Of a DNA stretch of 44,707 nt, positions 21,058 through 40,243 are shown one piece after another. The stretch covers positions 1 to 44,707 of the forward strand of contig JAGOQF010000004.1 of assembly GCA_017991615.1 (NCBI GenBank). The letters are read 5' to 3'. This DNA is from Candidatus Shapirobacteria bacterium. Its GTDB lineage: Bacteria; Patescibacteriota; Microgenomatia; UBA12405. How positions within the stretch are numbered: the first letter of the stretch is position 1; each line of letters begins with the position of its first letter. The position numbers were made by a program, and so were the translations under genes. Under the pieces are notes generated by a model. That model saw only the letters and a program-made list of their open reading frames with translations. It ran no database searches and had not been told where the DNA came from.

Positions 21058-21118
21058 TGATATGGTTTGATGTATTATTTGAGTTTGTTTGATATATTTA
21101 TTTAAATTTAAAATAGGT

Positions 21119-21124
21119 CATAAT
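21119..21124 (+). promoter_or_regulatory. -10 box (CATAAT) six bases before the SIMPL gene ATG
   Basis: CATAAT at 21119-21124 with the ATG at 21131; leaderless geometry. It decides for 21131 over the earlier in-frame start at 21089. Confidence 0.48.
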
Positions 21125-21130
21125 AGAATT

Positions 21131-21859
21131 ATGAAAGAGAATAATAAGTTGATGTTGATAATGGTAGTACTAGTGTTAATTTTTTTACTTCCTTGGGGAA
21201 GGATAAATTGGGGTAAGGTGAGATGGATGCAGTCGGAAACAGTGACAGTGATTGGCGAGGCGAAATCGGTTCAAAAAAATCAAATAGCTACTTTTAATGC
21301 TGGGGTGGACGCGATTAATTCGGATAAAGATAAAGCGGTTGATGAGGTTAATAATAAAATGGAAGCAATTATCAAAGCGATTAAAGATTTTGGGATAGCG
21401 GAGACTGATATAAAGACGCAGAATTTGAACATTTTTCAACAAGAAGAAACTTATTATGAAGGTGGAGTTCAGAAAAATCGTAAAGGTCAGTGGCGGGTTA
21501 GTAATAGTATAGAAATTGTATTGAGAGAAGTGGACAAGGCTTCAAAATTGACTTCACTATTAACTTCAAGTGGGGCGAATAATGTTTATGGACCAAACTT
21601 TTCGTTTGATGATGTCAGTGAAGCGCAGAAAGGATTGTATGAAGCGGCGATGAAAGATGCCCGAGAAAAAGCAGAAATGTTGGTTAAGGTATCGGGGCGG
21701 AAATTGGGAAAAGTGGTAAATGTGTCTGAGAGTGGTAGCAATGGGATTTACCCAAAATATCAGGTGATGATGGAGAGTTTAGGAGGTGGGGGAGCGTTGG
21801 TGGAGCCAGGGTCAGGGACGGTTAGACAGTCGTTGGTGGTAGTGTTTGAATTAGAGTAA
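21131..21859 (+). CDS. SIMPL (DUF541) domain protein, membrane-anchored
   Basis: 242 aa from the ATG at 21131. An N-terminal membrane helix (LMLIMVVLVLIFLLPWG) is followed by an outside SIMPL domain: VTVIGEAKSVQKNQIATFN, SDKDKAVDEVNNKMEAI, DIKTQNLNIFQQEE and a C-terminal DAREKAEMLVKVSGRKLGKV. SIMPL proteins form oligomeric periplasmic or surface rings of poorly known role. A paralogue lies at 34502. Confidence 0.88.
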   Translation: MKENNKLMLIMVVLVLIFLLPWGRINWGKVRWMQSETVTVIGEAKSVQKNQIATFNAGVDAINSDKDKAVDEVNNKMEAIIKAIKDFGIAETDIKTQNLNIFQQEETYYEGGVQKNRKGQWRVSNSIEIVLREVDKASKLTSLLTSSGANNVYGPNFSFDDVSEAQKGLYEAAMKDAREKAEMLVKVSGRKLGKVVNVSESGSNGIYPKYQVMMESLGGGGALVEPGSGTVRQSLVVVFELE

Positions 21860-30759: not shown

Positions 30760-31001
30760 TTTTGTCTCCTTTCTGGTTGGGCCTGCGCATCGGTGCTTCC
30801 CTTTAAGTAAAACTTATGGGCCTGCATGCCGGGCTTCCCTGACCAAGTCGTTTGGGTAACAGCAACATATATGTAAAATGGGTAAAACCCATGTATATGC
30901 AACTCGCAAATTGTAAAAGTTCTGTGAAACTTTATAATCAAGACGCGGTGTCTTGAGATAAATATTTTCACTTTGTTAAAGTTTGATACCTTTTGAGTAT
31001 C
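30760..31001 (-). ncRNA. Long structured 5' leader of the zinc-ribbon gene
   Basis: About 240 nt between the predicted start of transcription and the ATG. In order on the minus strand: hairpin TTGATAC/GTATCAA; GTGAAA...TTTCAC enclosing CAAGAC-ACCGC-GTCTTG; CATATA-C-ATGGG-TTTTA-CCCAT...TATATG; then two copies of a 22-23-nt motif of form GGGAAGC-loop-GC-AGGCCC. The Shine-Dalgarno follows the second copy by a few bases. It matches no riboswitch class I can name. Confidence 0.6.
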
Positions 31002-31007
31002 AAGAGG

Positions 31008-31036
31008 ATTGTAACATACAAGTGTTTAATTGTCAA
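31008..31036 (-). promoter_or_regulatory. Promoter for the structured leader
   Basis: On the minus strand TTGACA (31036-31031), 17 nt, then TACAAT (31013-31008) with TGT before it. Confidence 0.75.
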
Positions 31037-31310
31037 GATTATAGGATATGTAATAAGTTCATCAAGTTTGTCAAGTTGAAAGTTTATAAAGTAGAAGAAA
31101 GATTTGGATTCAACTTTTATCATCAATTTTTCCACTGGAAAATGAGTTTGCGATGCAGGCTCAAATACGTTCCAAAATTATGATTTCGGGTTGAAGTAAA
31201 TTAGGATTGGATATGAATTGTTATCTCATCCCGATATCGACTGATCGTCAATCGGGATTGGATTTTAAGGCAAAATTTCGGCGTTATCACTTGAAATTTA
31301 GACCTAAAAA
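31031..31310. repeat. Composite repeat: 9-nt array, block A, palindromic block B
   Basis: 9-nt units at about 31050-31092; then the GTAGAA...ATTCAAC tail. Block A (31116-31202) has the palindrome TTTTCCA-C-TGGAAAA, GCGATGCAGGCTC and TTCGGGTTGAAGTAAATTAG. Block B (31203-31310) has ATCCCGATATCGACTGATCG...ATCGGGATTGG and AAATTTAGACCTA. Block A recurs at 31687-31771; block B recurs at 3602 and 3937. No gene lies in 31002-31364 outside these. Confidence 0.8.
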
Positions 31311-31311
31311 T

Positions 31312-31346
31312 TTCAAAAAAAAATCACCCCGAGGGATCGGGGTGAT
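31312..31346 (-). terminator. Strong rho-independent terminator of the 59-aa gene
   Basis: Perfect 10-bp stem ATCACCCCGA-TCCC-TCGGGGTGAT (minus-strand sense) followed by nine T. Confidence 0.9.
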
Positions 31347-31364
31347 AATCTTTGTTAGGAATGA

Positions 31365-31544
31365 TTAGTAATGACAGCCTCGAAGCTGAAGATATTCGGT
31401 AGGGTCTTGGTTTTTACTAGCTTCATCTAGGAGGAATTCGTCAAAGTCTTTAATACGGCGGGAAACGGAAACCTGACCGTTTTCATGTTTGGTTATTTCA
31501 GCCACAGGAATACAGGCTTTTTCTGTTGAAAAATCACTTGACAT
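31365..31544 (-). CDS. Small protein, 59 aa, strong expression signals, unknown family
   Basis: ATG at 31544, TAA at 31367-31365. The product begins MSSDFSTEKACIPVAEITKH, continues with VSVSRRIKDFDEFLLDEASK and ends in PTEYLQLRGCHY. It is acidic to neutral and has only two cysteines, one three residues from the C-terminus. It has a near-perfect promoter (31597-31626), an AAAAGGAG Shine-Dalgarno, and a strong terminator 18 nt after the stop: a complete single-gene unit built for high expression. No family is recognised. A small regulator, an abundant structural protein or a peptide precursor are all possible. Confidence 0.75.
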   Translation of the reverse strand: MSSDFSTEKACIPVAEITKHENGQVSVSRRIKDFDEFLLDEASKNQDPTEYLQLRGCHY

Positions 31545-31596
31545 AAAAATATCTCCTTTTTTAATTTTTAATGGGAAATTGATGAGGTAGGCTTTT

Positions 31597-31626
31597 ATTG
31601 TAGCATAAATAAAGGTTGGTTGTCAA
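31597..31626 (-). promoter_or_regulatory. Near-consensus promoter of the 59-aa gene
   Basis: TTGACA (31626-31621), 18 nt, then TACAAT (31602-31597) with an extended TGC. The -35 box is part of a repeated block that also borders the promoters at 31008 and 4656. Confidence 0.82.
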
Positions 31627-31772
31627 GATTATGGGATATGTAATAAGTTCATCAAGTAGAAAGAAGATTTAAATTCAACCCTCATCATCAATTTTTCCAC
31701 TGGAAAATGAGTCTGCGATGCAGGCTCAAATACGTTCCAAAATTATGATTTCGGGTTGAAGTAAATTAGTAA
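31621..31772. repeat. Second copy of the composite repeat (short array and block A)
   Basis: TGTCAAGATTATGGGATATG and TAATAAGTTCATCAAG match 31031-31066. Block A at 31687-31771 matches 31116-31202 with few changes. Block B is absent here. Confidence 0.82.
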
Positions 31773-31839
31773 GATTGGTTTGAGATTCTTGATTTGGGAT
31801 TTGGGAATAAAAATAAGTTATTAATTTTAATTGTTAAGA

Positions 31840-32632: not shown

Positions 32633-33535
32633 TTAGGTTAATTTTTTAATAAATTCAGTCAAACTGTCTTTTAGGTTGGGGTCGTTGAGGGCGAGGGTGA
32701 TATTGGCAATAAGCCAACGAAGGGGGTCGCCGGTGGTCAACCAATCTTCGGCACCTTCAAAGGCTTGGGTGAGGACAATACCGATTTTAGCAAGTTGATT
32801 GCTGGCGTCGGAAAACCAGAGTTCACCGTCGCGGGAGAGAGATTGGTGTTCGAGCAGGTCAAAGACTTTGGGGGTGACGACAAACCGACCGCCTTGAGCA
32901 AAGGTGGAGGGAGCTTGATTGGCCGGGAGTTTTTCCAACATAGCGGAAATACGATGAGGATAGTTTGGATCATCCATATATTGAGCGGAGCCATAACGAC
33001 TGATTTCTTCAGGACCAACATCTTTGACAGCGATAATTTCGTCGGGGTGGTATTGATCAAAGGTTTGGAGCATACGAGTCAAGAATTGGCCGGTTTTTGG
33101 TTCGACAGTAAGATCGTCGCCGTACATATAGACAAATGGGTTGGCGCCGATAAAATCTTTGGCGGCTAAAAGAGGGGACCCAGTGCCATAAGGAAGATTG
33201 GTAGGTTGAGGAATAAAGGTAAGTTTGGTTTGAGACCAAATGTTTTTGAGACTGTCAAGATAATCAAGTTTGTTGGTTTCGGTAAGATATTTTTCTAGTT
33301 CTGGGTCGGGAGAGAAATATTTTTCAATTGAATTTTCACCAAGACGATGAACAATAGCAATTTCAGTAATACCAGCACCAATAGCTTCTTCAATCAGATA
33401 TTGAATATTAGGTTTGGAGATAAGAGGAACAAGTTCTTTGGGATAAGCTTTAACTACGGGCAGAAAACGAGTGCCGCGACCAGCAGCGGCAATAACGGCT
33501 TTAGTGACGGTTTGAGAAGAAGATTTATGATTCAA
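32633..33535 (-). CDS. galU: UTP--glucose-1-phosphate uridylyltransferase, copy 2
   Basis: 300 aa. It makes UDP-glucose from UTP and glucose-1-phosphate for surface glycans. The N-terminal signature AAAGRGTRFLPVVKAYPKE is complete; YMYGDDLTVEP holds the metal-binding Asp; GGRFVVTPKVFDLLE and the ending LALNDPNLKDSL are typical. It differs from the upstream copy by a longer N-terminus (MNHKSSSQTV) and by scattered changes in the middle third. Gap to copy 1: 13 nt. Confidence 0.92.
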   Translation of the reverse strand: MNHKSSSQTVTKAVIAAAGRGTRFLPVVKAYPKELVPLISKPNIQYLIEEAIGAGITEIAIVHRLGENSIEKYFSPDPELEKYLTETNKLDYLDSLKNIWSQTKLTFIPQPTNLPYGTGSPLLAAKDFIGANPFVYMYGDDLTVEPKTGQFLTRMLQTFDQYHPDEIIAVKDVGPEEISRYGSAQYMDDPNYPHRISAMLEKLPANQAPSTFAQGGRFVVTPKVFDLLEHQSLSRDGELWFSDASNQLAKIGIVLTQAFEGAEDWLTTGDPLRWLIANITLALNDPNLKDSLTEFIKKLT

Positions 33536-33548
33536 AAATAAATAGAGA

Positions 33549-34430
33549 TTAGGTTAATTTTTTAATAGATTCGATTAAGCCGTCTTTTAGATGGGGATCG
33601 TTGAGGGCGAGGGTGATATTGGCAATAAGCCAACGAAGGGGGTCGCCGGTGGTCAACCAATCTTCGGAACCTTCAAAGGCTTGGGTAAGGACGACATCAT
33701 TTTTGGCAAGATAATTTTGAGCGTCGGCCAACCAAAGTTCGTTGCCTTGGCCGGTGGGTTGGTTTTCTAAGACGGAGATAATTTTGTTGTTGAGAACAAA
33801 TCGACCCCCTTGAGCAAAAGTAGAGGGAGCTTGGTCAGCCGGGAGTTTTTCTAACATAGCGGAAATACGATGAGGATAGTTTGGATCATCCATATATTGA
33901 GCGGAGCCATAACGGCTGATTTCTTCGGAGCCGACATCTTTGACGGCGATAACTGAAGCCGGGGAATATTGATCAAAAGTAGCCATCATTTTGGATAAAA
34001 ATTGACCGGGAGTGGGTTCAACGGTAAGATCGTCGCCAAACATATAGACAAAATTATCAGTGCCGATAAAGTTTTTGGCGGCCAAAATCGGAGAGCCGTT
34101 GCCATAAGGAAGATTGATAGGTTGAGGAATAAAGGTAAGTTTGGCTTGAGACCAAATGTTTTTGAGACTGTCAAGATAATCAAGTTTGTTGGTTTCGGTA
34201 AGATATTTTTCTAATTCAGGGTCGGGAGAGAAATATTTTTCAATTGAATTTTCACCAAGACGATGAACAATAGCAATTTCAGTAATACCAGCACCAATAG
34301 CTTCTTCAATCAGATATTGAATATTAGGTTTGGAGATAAGAGGAACAAGTTCTTTGGGATAAGCTTTAACTACGGGCAGAAAACGAGTGCCGCGACCAGC
34401 AGCGGCAATAACGGCTTTAGTGATAGTCAT
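33549..34430 (-). CDS. galU: UTP--glucose-1-phosphate uridylyltransferase, copy 1
   Basis: 293 aa, tandem paralogue of 32633-33535 and the upstream gene of the pair. About the first 95 residues after TKAV are identical in the two proteins, whereas residues from about 120 to 165 and 215 to 260 differ clearly. Active-site motifs (GRGTRFLPVVKAYPKE, YMFGDDLTVEP) are intact, so both may be active. A weak TGCTACCAT lies eight bases before the ATG. Confidence 0.92.
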   Translation of the reverse strand: MTITKAVIAAAGRGTRFLPVVKAYPKELVPLISKPNIQYLIEEAIGAGITEIAIVHRLGENSIEKYFSPDPELEKYLTETNKLDYLDSLKNIWSQAKLTFIPQPINLPYGNGSPILAAKNFIGTDNFVYMFGDDLTVEPTPGQFLSKMMATFDQYSPASVIAVKDVGSEEISRYGSAQYMDDPNYPHRISAMLEKLPADQAPSTFAQGGRFVLNNKIISVLENQPTGQGNELWLADAQNYLAKNDVVLTQAFEGSEDWLTTGDPLRWLIANITLALNDPHLKDGLIESIKKLT

Positions 34431-34501
34431 AGTAAGTTATGGTAGCACATAAATGTAGTGGAAGTTAATTGATTTAATTTTAGGTTGTGATTTAATTAAT
34501 T

Positions 34502-35185
34502 ATGGAAAATGAACTAAATTTAACTAAACAAGGTTTTATTTCTAAATCAAATAGTAATAAGGTTGTTTTGATTCTTTTGGTTTTAATTTTGTGTTTGAGT
34601 GTGACGATACTATATCGGTTAACGAGAACAACTTCGACAATTTCGGTGACAGGTAGGGCTGAGATTACAGCCAAACCTGATAGAGTTAGTTTTATAGTTA
34701 CCAGAGTAAATACTGGCGTTGATGCTTCACAGGCGATTGATGATGGAGTGGCAGGAATAAATAAATTGATTACTTTGGTGAGGGAGATGGGAGGGAGTGA
34801 TGTGGAGATTAAAAAGACGTTTAATCAGGTTACGCCAGGAACTAACGGTTATACGGTAGCAAATGCTTTTAGTGTTAAAACAAAAAGAGTTAATGAGGTT
34901 GATTACTTGATAAAAAAGTTATACATGGGAGGAGCAAGTACTGTTTCTAATGTTAGTTTTGAGTCTAGTGACATTGCGGGGGTGGAACAAAGGTTGAGAG
35001 ATGATGTCTATAAAGATGCTTTGGAAAAGGCTAAACGAATTGCTAGGTCTGCAGGTAAACGGTTGGGTGGGGTAGTGGCAATTACTGATGATGCTGGTGA
35101 TAATTCCAGTACGGTAAGCACTTCGATGGTTGAAAATTTAATTAGTGTATCAAAAAGTATCACAGTAGTTTATAAAATTTGGTAA
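34502..35185 (+). CDS. SIMPL (DUF541) domain protein, second copy
   Basis: 227 aa. A membrane helix at residues 21-40 (KVVLILLVLILCLSVTIL) is followed by STISVTGRAEITAKPDRVSF, the SIMPL start. The C-terminal DALEKAKRIARSAGKRLGGV matches the same region of the 21131 product. A TTTAAT preceded by TGA lies five bases before the ATG. The giant surface protein starts right after its stop, so the two may be co-translated. Confidence 0.86.
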   Translation: MENELNLTKQGFISKSNSNKVVLILLVLILCLSVTILYRLTRTTSTISVTGRAEITAKPDRVSFIVTRVNTGVDASQAIDDGVAGINKLITLVREMGGSDVEIKKTFNQVTPGTNGYTVANAFSVKTKRVNEVDYLIKKLYMGGASTVSNVSFESSDIAGVEQRLRDDVYKDALEKAKRIARSAGKRLGGVVAITDDAGDNSSTVSTSMVENLISVSKSITVVYKIW

Positions 35186-35194
35186 TTGTTGAGA

Positions 35195-38100
35195 ATGATA
35201 ATTAACCGGAAAGAGCAAGGGTTGGTTAACTTAACGGTGTTGGTGGGAATGTTGATAATAGCAGTGTCTTTGCCGGTAGCTACGAAACTGGTTCAACGGA
35301 ATCAGGAAAATAGGAGTAGGGCGGCGGTGGTTAATCAAGCAATGTTGATTGATGGTGAAACTGGAGGTACATCTGTAAAATCGATTCCGGTTAAGTCAAT
35401 ATGTACTGCTAAGGAATATAAATGTGGTAATTCGGTTTTAAATCAATGTAATGATTCGGGTACTGGTTGGAAATTTATAATGAATTGTGAATTAGGGTGT
35501 AACTCTACAGGTAAGGGATGTCTTGGTTGTAGGTCTACCGATCCATCAACTTGTACACCTGATGGAAAGTTAAAAAAATGTTTTAAGGGAAATTGGTCTA
35601 CTTCTGATTGTCCATCTGGTGAGATTTGTAAAAATGGAGAGTGTGTAAAAGAAGTAATAACATCAACAACAACATCATCATCATCATCGGCATCAGTCTC
35701 CATTTGTTCTGATACTAATTGTGGTAATTGTGGCACAATTTCTGATTGTAATGCCAAAGCTGGTTGCAGATGGGATTACAGTGGAAATTACTGTATTAAA
35801 AAGACGATATCAGCAGTACCATCTCCAACTTGTTCTGCTTCTAACTGTGGTAATTGTAATCAAGCTCAATGTAGCCAACAAGTTGGTTGTAGATGGGCTG
35901 GTGGTGCTTGTATACCACAGGTAGCAACACCTGCATCTAGCTTAGTTAATGGTGAATGTGACACTTCAGCTGTTAACAGGTGTAAGGAAGGGACTTTTCA
36001 GGATACACCTGATACTACTTATGAATATCGATGGAAATGTTTAGGTAGAAATGGTGGGACGACGGCTACTTGTTTCAAAGCCAAACCAACCTCAATTCCA
36101 TCTAAGTCATTATGTATTCCTCAAGGAGGCAGGTGTGTTTCAGGAGGTTCGGTATGTTCATATGAACGTAAAGGGACTGTAATTCCTAACACTGATTGTT
36201 CTGGTTTAACTCCAGTTTGTTGTAAGATGACAATTGAAACTGATTGTAAAAATACCAATGACGGTTATGATGTTGGTTTTGCTGATGATAGGATGTGTAA
36301 ACCTTCAGAGTATTGTAATGCTTCCTACAAATGTGTTTCTAAAAAAGATGATGGAAATAGTTGTCTTGATAATCGTGAGTGTAAGAGTAATAAGTGTGTT
36401 AATAAAGTTTGTCAAACAGAAATAACATCATCCTCAACTTCACCAGTACCAGCTAGTACTTGTTCTAACGATAATTGTGGTTCTTGTAGTTATGATGAAT
36501 GTATTAATCCTGAGTTAACTGGGTGTACATGGAGTAATGGAGCTTGTATAGTGGCAGTACCCGCTTGTTCTTCCATCAATTGTGGTAATTGTATTACAGT
36601 TTCTAACTGTACTGCGGCTGGTTGTAAGTGGGTTGGTGGTGCTTGTGTACCACAAGTAACGCCACTAATATCAGTAAAAATTAATGGTAAATGTTCGCCT
36701 GTATTTAACACGTGTTCAGCTGGGACTTTTGAAGATACTGACGATACCGATACTGAATTTAAATGGGTTTGCAAAGGGATTGATGGAGGGAAGGATATTA
36801 ATTGTAGTATAATTAAAGCTAAATGTGGTAGTAGTAATGGTAAGAGTGTGAATCGGGCTCCAAGTGGAATTGAAGCGTGTGAGGTTGGTGGTATCAGTTG
36901 GGATGACCAGTATCCTGTCGATAAAGAGTATAACTGGGACTGTGTTGTCTATGCGGTGCCGGGAAACTCTGTTAAATGTAAAGCCAAGGTTAAGTTAGTA
37001 TCGAGATGGTGGTGTGGGGATGATAATACTTATTCGGACTATTATGATGCCAATGGTGAGAAGGTTAGAACTATAAAATGTGAGAATAGGTGTGATAGTG
37101 GGAATACTGGTCAGTGCAATAGCATAGATAGGGTTAAGAGCAGAAAGTGCGTTAAGGTTTTTCTTCAAGATTGGTGGTATGAGGGATATGATGCCAGTGG
37201 TAGAAAAATAATTTCTGAAAGATGTTTGAATGGAGCTGGTTGTAGTGATAGTACTGGGTGTACTAATACTGAAACAATAGCAACTATTAATCCCTCAGGA
37301 ATTAAATTAAGTGCCAGTAAAATCAGTTTGTATGTCGGAGAGAAACAACAGATAACAGCAACAGTAGAACCAGAGAACGCTTCTAACAAAACAGTAACTT
37401 GGTCAACCAGTAATAATTTAATAGCCAGTGTGTCAGATACAGGAATGGTAATAGCAAAGAGTATTGGAACAGCAACTTTAACAGCTAAGACAGTAAATGG
37501 AAAAACGGCTGAAGTAGTAGTAACTGTAAACACTAAACTATCAACTTTAACTTCAATTTGTTCTGATACTAACTGTGGTAATTGTGGCACAGTTTCTAAC
37601 TGTACTGCGGCTGGTTGTAAATGGGATTACAGTGGAAATTACTGTGTTAAAAAGACGGCGTCGACAGCAACATCTATTAGTACTTGTAGTAGTAGTAATT
37701 GTGGTGGGTGTACAACTTTTTTGGAATGTATAAAAACAAAAGGGTGCGGATTTGATAAGGGATGTGTGCCGGCTTATTGGTTGTGTGGTGATGATATATG
37801 GTCTGATTATTATGTGAATGGTGAGAAAAAAAGATCAATAAAGTGTGATAGTGGTGGATGTAACCAGACAACAGGTGAATGTAATCAATCAACGTTAGGG
37901 ACAACCAAAGAGTGTAAAAAATTTCAGAATATATTTATAACTGAGTGGTGGTTAGAAACGAAGGATGCTCAAGGTAAGAAGATTTCTTCGGAAAGATGTA
38001 AAGAGAACTGTGTAAATGGTGCTTGTGTTAAATCTAAACCAACTTGTGCATCTTTGGGAGGAGAGTGTCAGAATTTATCTCTTTGTGAGAAGTCAGGTGG

Positions 38101-39496
38101 AAAGGCGGTTGAAAGCTCAGATTGTGGTGACAGGAACGACTCAGCGGCTCCGATTTGCTGTCAGCCGACTAACTTAAATTGTGATGGAGAACCACTTGGT
38201 AGTCAAAAGTGTCTTAGTATTGGAGCGGTATTAAAATGTACCCCAACGGGTTGGGATCAGGTTGATTGTGATAGTACTTCAGGACATTATTGTTTAACTA
38301 ATCGATGCGAAAGGGTAACTCCACCTAAAAAAGAAAATGATAGTTGTTTGCCAGGAATAGTAGGTTATGAGTGTCCTCAATCAACAAGTTGTTTTAACTT
38401 TAAGTGTATTTCAAATTTGGAATTAAAAAGAATTAAATCAGATGAGATTAAGTGTAAGTCAGTTAGTTATGGTTTAGCTTCGATTTATGATCCGGAAACA
38501 GCTTGTCCAGAAGGGTGGTCATGTAATCAGAGGTCAGAGATATGTGAAAAATTGGAAATTAATATTAAAAAACCGGCTGGAGCTTTATGTAAGTCGGATT
38601 TGGAATGTGCTTCAACTTATTGTCAACCGGTGACAGCTGATCCGAATAATCCGTCTTTTTGTAGTGATATAAGTCAAAAGGAGTATGTTGATAAAGGAAA
38701 TGTAAACGCGGCAATTATTGGAGGTGTAATTATGGCGCCGGCGGTGGTGGCGGGAGGGGTGGCTGCGGCTCCGGCAGTGACTAGCGCTTACTATTCTTTG
38801 GGGAGTTTGGCAATGACAAAAATGGCTACATTAGCGGCTGGTGGGGGAGTGGCGGGGAAAATATATCAGATTTTGAATACAGCAGATAGTGTTGTGGATA
38901 TGGGGGAGATGATTTATGGATTGGCGATTTGCAAGGATAATCCTGGTTCTGCAAAATGTTTGGAAATTCAGGCTAGATTATCTAACCCGGTTATATATAA
39001 CAGTTTAGTGGATGAAGCAGTAGAATTGACTCAACAGGCGGGAATGAAGATAGGAAGGATATTTGGTAAAGCTGGGGAGGAGATAGTGGAGGTGGGGGTT
39101 GATTTGACATCTAAAGCGGCGGCCAAGGCAATGACGGCGGATGAGTTGGGGGCGGTGACTGGGGTGGTTGAGCCGTTGACGGATAGTGGAAAATTATTAG
39201 TGAAACAATTAGAAAATGGAGGAGAGTTGATAAATGTTGGTGGAGTAACTTTTGTTGGGCCTGGTAGAGTGGATATTTTTGATAAGTATGGAGTAAATTT
39301 TGATCCTAATAAACCAACAGTATCATATTCCCTTTTATCTGGAGAGATAGCTTCACGGAATCCAAGTAGAAGGATTCATGATGTTAGTGATTTATATGCC
39401 GATAATAAGCGATTTTGGGCGTATCAAACTGGGATGGAGTTGGATTTGACAGATGATAATTTGGATTTAATAGCCGATTATATTGCGGTTGAATAA
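35195..39496 (+). CDS. Giant cysteine-rich surface protein with Ig-like domain
   Basis: 1433 aa from the ATG at 35195 (an in-frame TTG lies at 35186). Seen in order: a pilin-like hydrophobic N-terminus (EQGLVNLTVLVGMLIIAV); Cys-rich region; at least six modules of CSxxNCGNC...C...GCxW...G-x-C (nt about 35704, 35830, 36460, 36565, 37559, 37684); WWCGDD segments; a bacterial Ig-like (Big2) domain at nt 37300-37535 (ISLYVGEKQQITATVEPENA); more Cys repeats; a Gly/Ala-rich hydrophobic stretch (nt 38701-38850); and a helical end. It is likely exported, disulfide-rich and surface-displayed. The frame stops at TAA 39494-39496 but continues open and coding-like to 40024, with a metallopeptidase motif. 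Confidence 0.85.
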   Translation: MIINRKEQGLVNLTVLVGMLIIAVSLPVATKLVQRNQENRSRAAVVNQAMLIDGETGGTSVKSIPVKSICTAKEYKCGNSVLNQCNDSGTGWKFIMNCELGCNSTGKGCLGCRSTDPSTCTPDGKLKKCFKGNWSTSDCPSGEICKNGECVKEVITSTTTSSSSSASVSICSDTNCGNCGTISDCNAKAGCRWDYSGNYCIKKTISAVPSPTCSASNCGNCNQAQCSQQVGCRWAGGACIPQVATPASSLVNGECDTSAVNRCKEGTFQDTPDTTYEYRWKCLGRNGGTTATCFKAKPTSIPSKSLCIPQGGRCVSGGSVCSYERKGTVIPNTDCSGLTPVCCKMTIETDCKNTNDGYDVGFADDRMCKPSEYCNASYKCVSKKDDGNSCLDNRECKSNKCVNKVCQTEITSSSTSPVPASTCSNDNCGSCSYDECINPELTGCTWSNGACIVAVPACSSINCGNCITVSNCTAAGCKWVGGACVPQVTPLISVKINGKCSPVFNTCSAGTFEDTDDTDTEFKWVCKGIDGGKDINCSIIKAKCGSSNGKSVNRAPSGIEACEVGGISWDDQYPVDKEYNWDCVVYAVPGNSVKCKAKVKLVSRWWCGDDNTYSDYYDANGEKVRTIKCENRCDSGNTGQCNSIDRVKSRKCVKVFLQDWWYEGYDASGRKIISERCLNGAGCSDSTGCTNTETIATINPSGIKLSASKISLYVGEKQQITATVEPENASNKTVTWSTSNNLIASVSDTGMVIAKSIGTATLTAKTVNGKTAEVVVTVNTKLSTLTSICSDTNCGNCGTVSNCTAAGCKWDYSGNYCVKKTASTATSISTCSSSNCGGCTTFLECIKTKGCGFDKGCVPAYWLCGDDIWSDYYVNGEKKRSIKCDSGGCNQTTGECNQSTLGTTKECKKFQNIFITEWWLETKDAQGKKISSERCKENCVNGACVKSKPTCASLGGECQNLSLCEKSGGKAVESSDCGDRNDSAAPICCQPTNLNCDGEPLGSQKCLSIGAVLKCTPTGWDQVDCDSTSGHYCLTNRCERVTPPKKENDSCLPGIVGYECPQSTSCFNFKCISNLELKRIKSDEIKCKSVSYGLASIYDPETACPEGWSCNQRSEICEKLEINIKKPAGALCKSDLECASTYCQPVTADPNNPSFCSDISQKEYVDKGNVNAAIIGGVIMAPAVVAGGVAAAPAVTSAYYSLGSLAMTKMATLAAGGGVAGKIYQILNTADSVVDMGEMIYGLAICKDNPGSAKCLEIQARLSNPVIYNSLVDEAVELTQQAGMKIGRIFGKAGEEIVEVGVDLTSKAAAKAMTADELGAVTGVVEPLTDSGKLLVKQLENGGELINVGGVTFVGPGRVDIFDKYGVNFDPNKPTVSYSLLSGEIASRNPSRRIHDVSDLYADNKRFWAYQTGMELDLTDDNLDLIADYIAVE

Positions 39497-40024
39497 GCAA
39501 AAATAGCGAGTCAGTATGAAATTCCAGAATCTTTTGATTTATGGAGAAGTTCTGGAGAAGAAAAAACAAGGTTGATGAAAAGTATATATCCTGAGGTAAA
39601 GAAAGTAGATAATTTTGAGGAATTAGATAAATATTTGTTTATGGGGGTAAATGGAAAGATTTCTTTTGGGGATATATTTAAGAATAATTCAGGAGCAACT
39701 AGTTTTGTAGCATCTTCATACCCTAATACTATTTTTATTAATCCCAATACTGTTAGTTTAGGTTATTCAGAGAGTATTTATTCACATGAAGCTTTACATC
39801 TATTGCAACTTCGTAATTATCCTGGTTTGGTTTTTGAGAAAAGAGAGTTTGAGGCTTATTTATATGCTGATTTTTTTGAAAGACTGGACAATATGGGAGG
39901 TGATGTGAAGAAAAGTATTGAGGATGTTATTAACGATATGGCTTCTTCTGTTAAAAGTTCGTATATGTATACGTACGGTCGTGATACTCCTGAATTTTTG
40001 TTACCACTGATTGATGGGCAGTAG
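39497..40024 (+). pseudogene. HExxH metallopeptidase-like C-terminal domain, same frame beyond an in-frame TAA
   Basis: The frame of the giant protein is open again directly after its TAA, with coding-like sequence (AKIASQYEIPESFDLWRSSG). It could restart at ATG 39572 (150 aa). HEALH at 39785-39799 is the zinc motif HExxH; EFEAYLYADFF 13-18 residues later offers a Glu as third ligand. There is no Shine-Dalgarno or promoter at 39572. Either the stop is a nonsense mutation or error in a 1609-aa protease-tipped protein, or the domain is made by readthrough or reinitiation. Confidence 0.65.
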
Positions 40025-40087: not shown

Positions 40088-40160
40088 GGGCCCATAGCGT
40101 AGTTGGTAGCGCGTCCCCATGGCATGGGGAAGGTCAGGGGTTCGAATCCCCTTGGGTCCA
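40088..40160 (+). tRNA. tRNA-Ala (anticodon GGC)
   Basis: Complete cloverleaf: acceptor GGGCCCA / TGGGTCC with the G3-U70 pair that marks alanine tRNAs, anticodon stem TCCCC / GGGGA with loop ATGGCAT, T-loop TTCGAAT, discriminator A. CCA is not encoded. Confidence 0.95.
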
Positions 40161-40171
40161 CTGAAAGTTTT

Positions 40172-40242
40172 AGGTCTGTGGTGAAATGGTATCACAGCAG
40201 TCTCCAAAACTGCTTTTCCAGGTTCGACTCCTGGCGGACCTG
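40172..40242 (+). tRNA. tRNA-Trp (anticodon CCA)
   Basis: Complete cloverleaf: acceptor AGGTCTG / CGGACCT, anticodon stem GCAGT / ACTGC with loop CTCCAAA, T-loop GTTCGACTC, discriminator G. It lies 11 nt after tRNA-Ala and is probably co-transcribed. Confidence 0.95.
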
Positions 40243-40243
40243 C

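What the first reader, a model, noticed from the sequence alone, without database searches (positions are those of the whole stretch)
39490..40024. Giant Cys-rich surface protein whose HExxH metallopeptidase end lies beyond an in-frame TAA
The frame stays open and coding-like for 176 codons after the TAA and holds HEALH plus a downstream Glu-rich EFEAYLYADFF. The upstream protein has a pilin-like anchor, Cys modules, an Ig-like domain and a Gly/Ala hydrophobic stretch before the tip, a layout like that of delivered toxins or predatory surface effectors. The stop would separate the stalk from its enzyme, either by mutation or as regulated release or readthrough.
Basis: partly seen in the sequence, partly recalled or inferred. 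Interest (0 to 1): 0.72.

Follow-up and report, generated by a model that had tools for sequence, protein, structure and literature searches.

The report
Microgenomates surface stalk, severed metallopeptidase tip
A tiny, probably host-dependent bacterium encodes a long cysteine-rich surface protein whose tip is a previously unnamed zinc-peptidase-like domain; a single stop codon now cuts the tip off, but relatives carry the same two-gene locus intact and with other enzyme-like tips, which suggests a family of surface weapons or tools whose business ends are swapped.

Summary
In detail: ORF 35186-39493 (1436 codons) ends in TAA 39494-39496 and the same frame stays open for 175 codons to TAG 40022-40024. 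The stretch after the TAA is coding: 0 of 20,000 random sequences stay open, the codon usage fits, and it belongs to a conserved HExxH...E domain family (12 members assembled here, Microgenomates and Dojkabacteria) that Pfam and NCBIfam do not cover. Homology begins within a few codons of the TAA, so the stop sits in the domain's first helix and no separate start gives a whole domain. Relatives G110 and G102 carry stalk and HExxH tip in one ORF. The likeliest reading is a nonsense change (or a consensus error) in a one-piece gene. Programmed readthrough is unsupported: TAA is the usual stop, 44 tRNAs include no UUA anticodon, and no RNA structure follows the stop. The larger finding: the gene belongs to a conserved pair, SIMPL (BP26-like) gene plus anchored giant protein, in 6 of 6 closest SIMPL orthologues and 0 of 17 generic ones. 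Its C-terminal tips differ between species. The layout is like that of polymorphic or predatory toxins without an immunity gene. Function is inferred, not shown.

The parts
34502..35185 (+). SIMPL/DUF541 gene, 227 aa, same strand, ends 9 nt before the ATG of the giant gene; conserved partner
   Evidence: Pfam PF04402 E 4.7e-23; clade profile matches Brucella BP26 (4hvz) E 4.9e-17; adjacency to an anchored giant in 6/6 closest orthologues
35186..39496 (+). Anchored Cys-rich giant protein, 1436 codons to TAA; probable start ATG at 35195
   Evidence: 116 Cys
35195..35341 (+). N-terminal membrane anchor/export segment GLVNLTVLVGMLIIAVSLPVATKLVQRNQENRSRAA
   Evidence: 52% identical over 40 aa to G030, E 1e-11 in a 10-protein set; anchor profile
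35400..38650 (+). Cys-rich stalk (up to 14 Cys per 100 aa), six PSI-like modules, one six-Cys module shared with relatives
37301..37504 (+). Big_2 bacterial Ig-like domain (residues 706-773)
   Evidence: Pfam PF02368 E 8e-12
38700..39110 (+). Hydrophobic Gly/Ala pre-tip segment followed by a Cys pair (ICKDNPGSAKC); approximate limits
   Evidence: weak match to G030 pre-tip (phmmer 2e-4 against 10 proteins)
39494..39496 (+). In-frame TAA inside the first helix of the tip domain
   Evidence: profile match 39485-40018 spans it
39497..40024 (+). Tip domain: HExxH...E metallopeptidase-like domain, 175 codons plus TAG
39785..39799 (+). HEALH zinc-binding motif (P0001 residues 97-101)
   Evidence: invariant H, E, H in 12 aligned sequences
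39842..39856 (+). REFEA; presumed third zinc ligand is the first Glu (P0001 E117), 16 residues after the second His
   Evidence: nearly invariant column
40088..40243 (+). tRNA-Ala(GGC) and tRNA-Trp(CCA) directly downstream, so no immunity-type gene follows the tip

Best explanation
The window holds a two-gene surface locus of a Microgenomates (CPR/Patescibacteria) bacterium: a BP26-like SIMPL protein and, directly adjacent, a ~1600-codon anchored protein built as N-terminal membrane anchor, Cys-rich stalk with an Ig-like domain, hydrophobic pre-tip segment and C-terminal zinc-peptidase-like tip. In relatives the same locus or layout carries other enzyme-like tips. The most likely working is an effector displayed on the cell surface: the disulfide-stiffened stalk holds the enzyme away from the cell, the hydrophobic segment helps the tip enter or bind a neighbouring (host or competitor) cell, and the tip cleaves a target. 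In this genome the in-frame TAA in the first helix of the tip domain ends the protein before the enzyme. It is a recent nonsense change, a minority-strain state or a consensus error, not a designed boundary. Shown: coding nature and homology of the tip, one-piece homologues, linkage to SIMPL, tip variation. Inferred: zinc binding, proteolysis, delivery, the SIMPL protein's role.
For: Tip is coding and conserved. One-piece homologues: G110 (anchor, 59 Cys, HEVCH in one frame) and G102 (520 aa, next to SIMPL). Profile homology crosses the TAA and its YxxP motif starts seven residues after it. First in-frame start after the TAA is at 39572, losing that motif. 44 tRNAs, none with anticodon UUA. 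No RNA structure after the stop, z +0.46. SIMPL-giant pair in G018, G034, G020, G015, G030 and the window; 0 of 17 generic SIMPL loci have an anchored giant in the same flank. Different tips: G171 C39-like (PF13529 E 1.3e-4, just below cut-off), G225 HETGH, G342 C...H...D, G030 ART-like by eye.
Against: No reads could be checked, so a true mutation and a consensus error cannot be told apart. Tip identities other than HExxH rest on weak or by-eye matches. Pre-tip homology across distant members was not significant in leave-one-out tests, except G030-G034 and, weakly, window-G030. No fold match in PDB or BFVD. The structure model of the window copy itself is poor, pLDDT 46. No activity data.
Confidence: 0.6

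Rival explanations
1. Programmed stop-codon readthrough: most molecules are stalk only, and a small fraction carries the enzyme.
For: The tip frame shows no further stop or frameshift and keeps its catalytic motif, so it has not decayed.
Against: TAA ends 26 of 41 window ORFs; no UUA anticodon among 44 tRNAs; no structure after the stop; no relative examined has a stop there; lack of decay is equally expected of a recent change or a consensus error.
Confidence: 0.05
2. The tip is a separate gene with its own start after the TAA, translated as a free cytoplasmic protein like the standalone paralogue near ruvC.
For: Standalone versions of the domain exist (own-genome L002, G009, G016, G018, G067, G146, G632). 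A TTG/ATG start lies at 39572/39575.
Against: Starting there removes the conserved YxxP motif and first helix; standalone versions carry about 30 or more residues before that motif; no well-spaced ribosome site by inspection; the closest surface homologues are fused.
Confidence: 0.08
3. Consensus or assembly error only: the real gene is intact and the TAA does not exist in the organism (a sub-case of the best explanation as far as the protein is concerned).
For: Metagenome-assembled genome; a single base would suffice; everything on both sides is coding and conserved.
Against: No positive evidence of error; no reads or second genome of the species available here. The other large window ORFs look intact.
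Confidence: 0.35
4. The protein is an ordinary surface protease for feeding or for maturation of the cell envelope, not a weapon or host-directed effector.
For: Stalked surface proteases are known elsewhere (own knowledge); no immunity gene or dedicated secretion genes are linked.
Against: Tips vary between enzyme-like types on the same kind of locus and are preceded by a hydrophobic segment, which is unusual for a feeding enzyme.
Confidence: 0.3

Closest known systems
Polymorphic toxins and allied predator-prey toxin systems (as described in PMC12419801 and works cited there)
   Same: More conserved N-terminal part, anchored to the cell, and a C-terminal enzyme-like tip that differs between relatives. 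No immunity gene, as PMC12419801 reports for predator-prey versions.
   Different: No RHS, HINT or contact-dependent-inhibition domain found by Pfam; Cys-rich stalk and SIMPL partner instead; toxicity untested.
SIMPL/DUF541 proteins, Brucella BP26 (PDB 4hvz)
   Same: The partner gene is a SIMPL protein (PF04402 E 4.7e-23; clade profile to 4hvz E 4.9e-17).
   Different: It forms its own high-scoring clade and is linked to a giant surface protein; the generic SIMPL in the same window (21083-21856) is not.
Zincin-like HExxH...E peptidases (DUF2268, M76, IrrE/M78 type)
   Same: HExxH plus a downstream Glu in an EYEAY-like motif; weak hits to DUF2268 and M76, phrog_87 metallo-protease E 2e-4 and Hvo_1808 surface protein E 1.4e-5 for some members.
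   Different: No Pfam or NCBIfam family is reached at its cut-off; no fold match with E <= 0.001.
Giant proteins of predatory Omnitrophota (PMC12419801)
   Same: Very long multi-domain proteins of ultra-small bacteria proposed to act on prey.
   Different: Different phylum, different domains; here a SIMPL-linked stalk with one C-terminal tip (giants of >8,100 and 13,125 codons exist in relatives).

Membership tests
Polymorphic toxin / predator-prey toxin system | More conserved N-terminal/trafficking part shared by relatives | tested here: met
   Anchor homology E 1e-11 to 1e-5 within the family; shared six-Cys module in eight proteins, above shuffles in most
Polymorphic toxin / predator-prey toxin system | Variable C-terminal enzymatic tip | tested here: inconclusive
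   Tips clearly differ in sequence; enzyme identity is firm only for the HExxH family, near-threshold for C39, by eye for ART-like and transglutaminase-like
Polymorphic toxin (classical, kin-directed) | Linked immunity gene | tested here: not met
   Two tRNAs follow the tip directly; next ORF 40340 has no family match
Polymorphic toxin / predator-prey toxin system | Toxicity to a target cell | not testable with these tools
   needs experiment
Zincin metallopeptidase (HExxH...E) | HExxH plus third Glu ligand conserved | tested here: met
   H, E, H invariant and Glu nearly invariant in 12 aligned sequences
Zincin metallopeptidase (HExxH...E) | Zincin fold | tested here: inconclusive
   A relative (L076) models at pLDDT 80 with HExxH in a long helix, but no PDB match; window copy models poorly
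SIMPL/DUF541 (gene 34502-35185) | PF04402 above gathering score | tested here: met
   83 bits against 25.2
Programmed readthrough gene | Stop conserved at the same place in relatives, or suppressor tRNA, or stimulating structure | tested here: not met
   None in relatives, no UUA tRNA found in a 95% complete genome, z +0.46
Type IV pilin-like protein | Class III signal with Glu at +5 | tested here: not met
   GLVNLT: no Glu at +5 (sequence)

The most novel reading that the evidence does not exclude
A CPR-specific contact-effector system: a dedicated SIMPL protein is co-produced with, and helps export or display, a membrane-anchored disulfide stalk whose enzymatic tip is exchanged between species (zinc peptidase, C39-like, transglutaminase-like, ADP-ribosyltransferase-like), used against the host or rival cells on which these bacteria depend.
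Probability: 0.4. Interest if true: 0.82.

Novelty: new variant of a known kind. Interest (0 to 1): 0.6.

Why it matters
How Patescibacteria act on the cells they live on is largely unknown. A locus recognised by a SIMPL gene next to an anchored stalk protein, with apparently swapped enzyme-like tips, gives a list of candidate surface effectors that can be tested one by one. It also adds an unnamed HExxH domain family of Microgenomates and Dojkabacteria. The stop codon itself is probably trivial, but it is a clean example of why the tip would be missed by annotation.

Tried and rejected
Pfam and NCBIfam for the tip: nothing at cut-off. Phage records and viral contigs: no relative. The wide alignment A2 was too diverse for the contig scan; the narrower A3 found only three loci, which named G167, G632 and G067. 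Structure: model of the window copy poor, of a relative good but with no fold match. Pre-tip segment as one homologous domain in all members: leave-one-out profiles recovered only G034, so it is claimed as a layout, not as homology. ART assignment of the G030 tip: no Pfam, NCBIfam or PDB support, kept as a lead only. Reassignment of a stop codon: rejected, all three stops end ORFs.

Full report
Observation. The frame of the large ORF 35186-39493 ends in TAA at 39494-39496 and continues open to TAG at 40022-40024, 175 sense codons. No sequence of 20,000 drawn from a first-order model of the same stretch, and none from a model of the window, stays open that long; codon usage scores +0.09 per codon in this frame, like the end of the upstream gene, and -1.39 to -0.13 in the other five. 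So the stretch is coding or was until very recently.

What the tip is. A search of the genome found a paralogue of 243 aa, between ruvC and ruvA, sharing HExxH, LQ, YPG and E(Y/F)EAY. Profile searches in the class and phylum added members in Microgenomates and Dojkabacteria. In 12 aligned sequences H, E and H of HExxH and one Pro are invariant; Tyr of YxxP, Gln, Pro, the Glu 16 residues after the second His and Ala are nearly so. This is the signature of a gluzincin-type zinc site (own knowledge). Pfam, NCBIfam and PHROGs give only weak, motif-level hits. AlphaFold2 gives a fairly confident model for the Dojkabacteria member (pLDDT 80) with HExxH in a long helix, but no PDB or BFVD match with E <= 0.001; the window copy models poorly with the four-row alignment used.

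Does the tip belong to the stalk? Yes in relatives. G110 contig C51 has an anchor, 59 Cys and the HExxH domain in one frame of at least 881 codons (its end is cut by a fold-back of the contig). G102 has a 520-aa protein with a Cys-containing N-terminal part, hydrophobic segments and the HExxH domain in one frame, followed directly by a SIMPL gene. In the window the profile match runs across the TAA (39485-40018), and the conserved YxxP motif begins seven residues after it. The first in-frame start codons after the TAA, TTG 39572 and ATG 39575, would remove that motif. The stop is therefore inside the domain, near its start.

Why the stop? TAA ends 26 of 41 large window ORFs, TAG 9 and TGA 6 (a few of those ORFs may not be genes). 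All 44 tRNAs found in this 95% complete genome have ordinary anticodons, none UUA. The RNA after the stop folds no better than shuffles (z +0.46). No homologue examined has a stop between stalk and tip. A nonsense change, a minority-strain state or a consensus error explains this best; readthrough is given 5%. Reads could not be consulted.

The locus. Directly upstream, same strand and same frame, lies a SIMPL/DUF541 gene (34502-35185), 9 nt before the ATG of the giant gene. A search with this SIMPL protein in the family found close orthologues in G018, G034, G020, G015 and G030. In each, the next gene on the same strand begins with the same kind of anchor (GLxQIPxxxGLLxMAxAxPVATxLxQxxQxxRxxAA) and is large: at least 3425, 822, over 8,100, 459 (contig end) codons for G018, G034, G020, G015, and 1162 for G030. 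In equal flanks, 6 of 6 closest orthologues have the anchored neighbour (5 of 6 Cys-rich), and 0 of 17 generic SIMPL loci do (the anchor profile was built from the six, so the control is the informative half). More distant clade members G225 and G342 also have an anchored Cys-rich protein near SIMPL, in other arrangements; G171 has an anchored protein with few Cys; G283 has none adjacent.

Tips differ. After the stalk and a hydrophobic segment, often followed by a Cys pair, the proteins end in: the HExxH family (window, G110, G102); a different HETGH motif (G225); GQCRH...H...D, transglutaminase- or papain-like by eye (G342); CGPTA...GH, near-threshold Peptidase_C39_2 (G171, E 1.3e-4, 23.0 bits against a cut-off of 24); YRG...TTNPDMAALFA...ESEF, ADP-ribosyltransferase-like by eye, with no library support (G030). 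The G018 giant shows charged, coiled-coil-like sequence at the end that is held, and G034 and G015 are cut by contig ends. A six-Cys module C-C-C-C-xxGC-C recurs in eight of the proteins; the window also has six PSI-like modules. Pre-tip segments are significantly homologous only between G030 and G034 (E 1e-23) and weakly window-G030 (phmmer 2e-4, in a 10-protein set).

How it most likely works. Shown: gene pair, anchor, Cys-rich stalk, hydrophobic segment, conserved HExxH site, variation of tips. Inferred: export by the general pathway, stiffening by disulfides, display at a distance, entry or binding through the hydrophobic segment, cleavage of a target. The SIMPL partner resembles BP26 (4hvz), which from my own knowledge forms a ring-like oligomer; a role in display or folding is a guess. 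PMC12419801 describes variable toxin tips on conserved carriers, with immunity genes in kin-directed systems and usually none in predator-prey systems; the absence of a linked immunity gene here (two tRNAs follow) fits the latter. Library searches for such a system in Microgenomates or Patescibacteria found none described, within the limits of that library.

Verdict. Observation confirmed; interpretation partly supported. The stop is probably trivial; the locus, with an unnamed peptidase-like tip family and apparently exchanged tips, is the finding worth keeping.

Noticed in passing
L061, L062, L077 (G167 C25, JAKAFY010000005.1): A single open frame of 13,125 codons carries two copies of the same HExxH domain and a GHSTG lipase-like motif.
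   Followed up: partly
L157 and L197 (G020 C44): The giant downstream of SIMPL is open for more than 8,100 codons, with HEHRH and HEEQH motifs that do not match the tip family profile.
   Followed up: partly
window 32636-33553 and 33552-34436 (-): Two tandem nucleotidyltransferase genes, 80% identical over their repeated 300 nt: a tandem duplication.
   Followed up: partly
window 30814-31830: About 1 kb without an ORF of 110 aa or an Rfam match, unusual in so compact a genome.
   Followed up: no
L002 1276-2007 (-) and L067 448-1371: Standalone, cytoplasmic-looking copies of the tip domain lie between ruvC and ruvA in two genera of the family; role unknown.
   Followed up: partly
L063 1-660 (G110 C51): The contig folds back on itself at its end, an assembly artefact that cuts the HExxH tip into two pieces on opposite strands.
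   Followed up: yes
L059 439-2175 (G102 C8): Tandem second Cys-rich protein with a divergent HELGH tip next to the HExxH one: possible tip diversification within one genome.
   Followed up: partly
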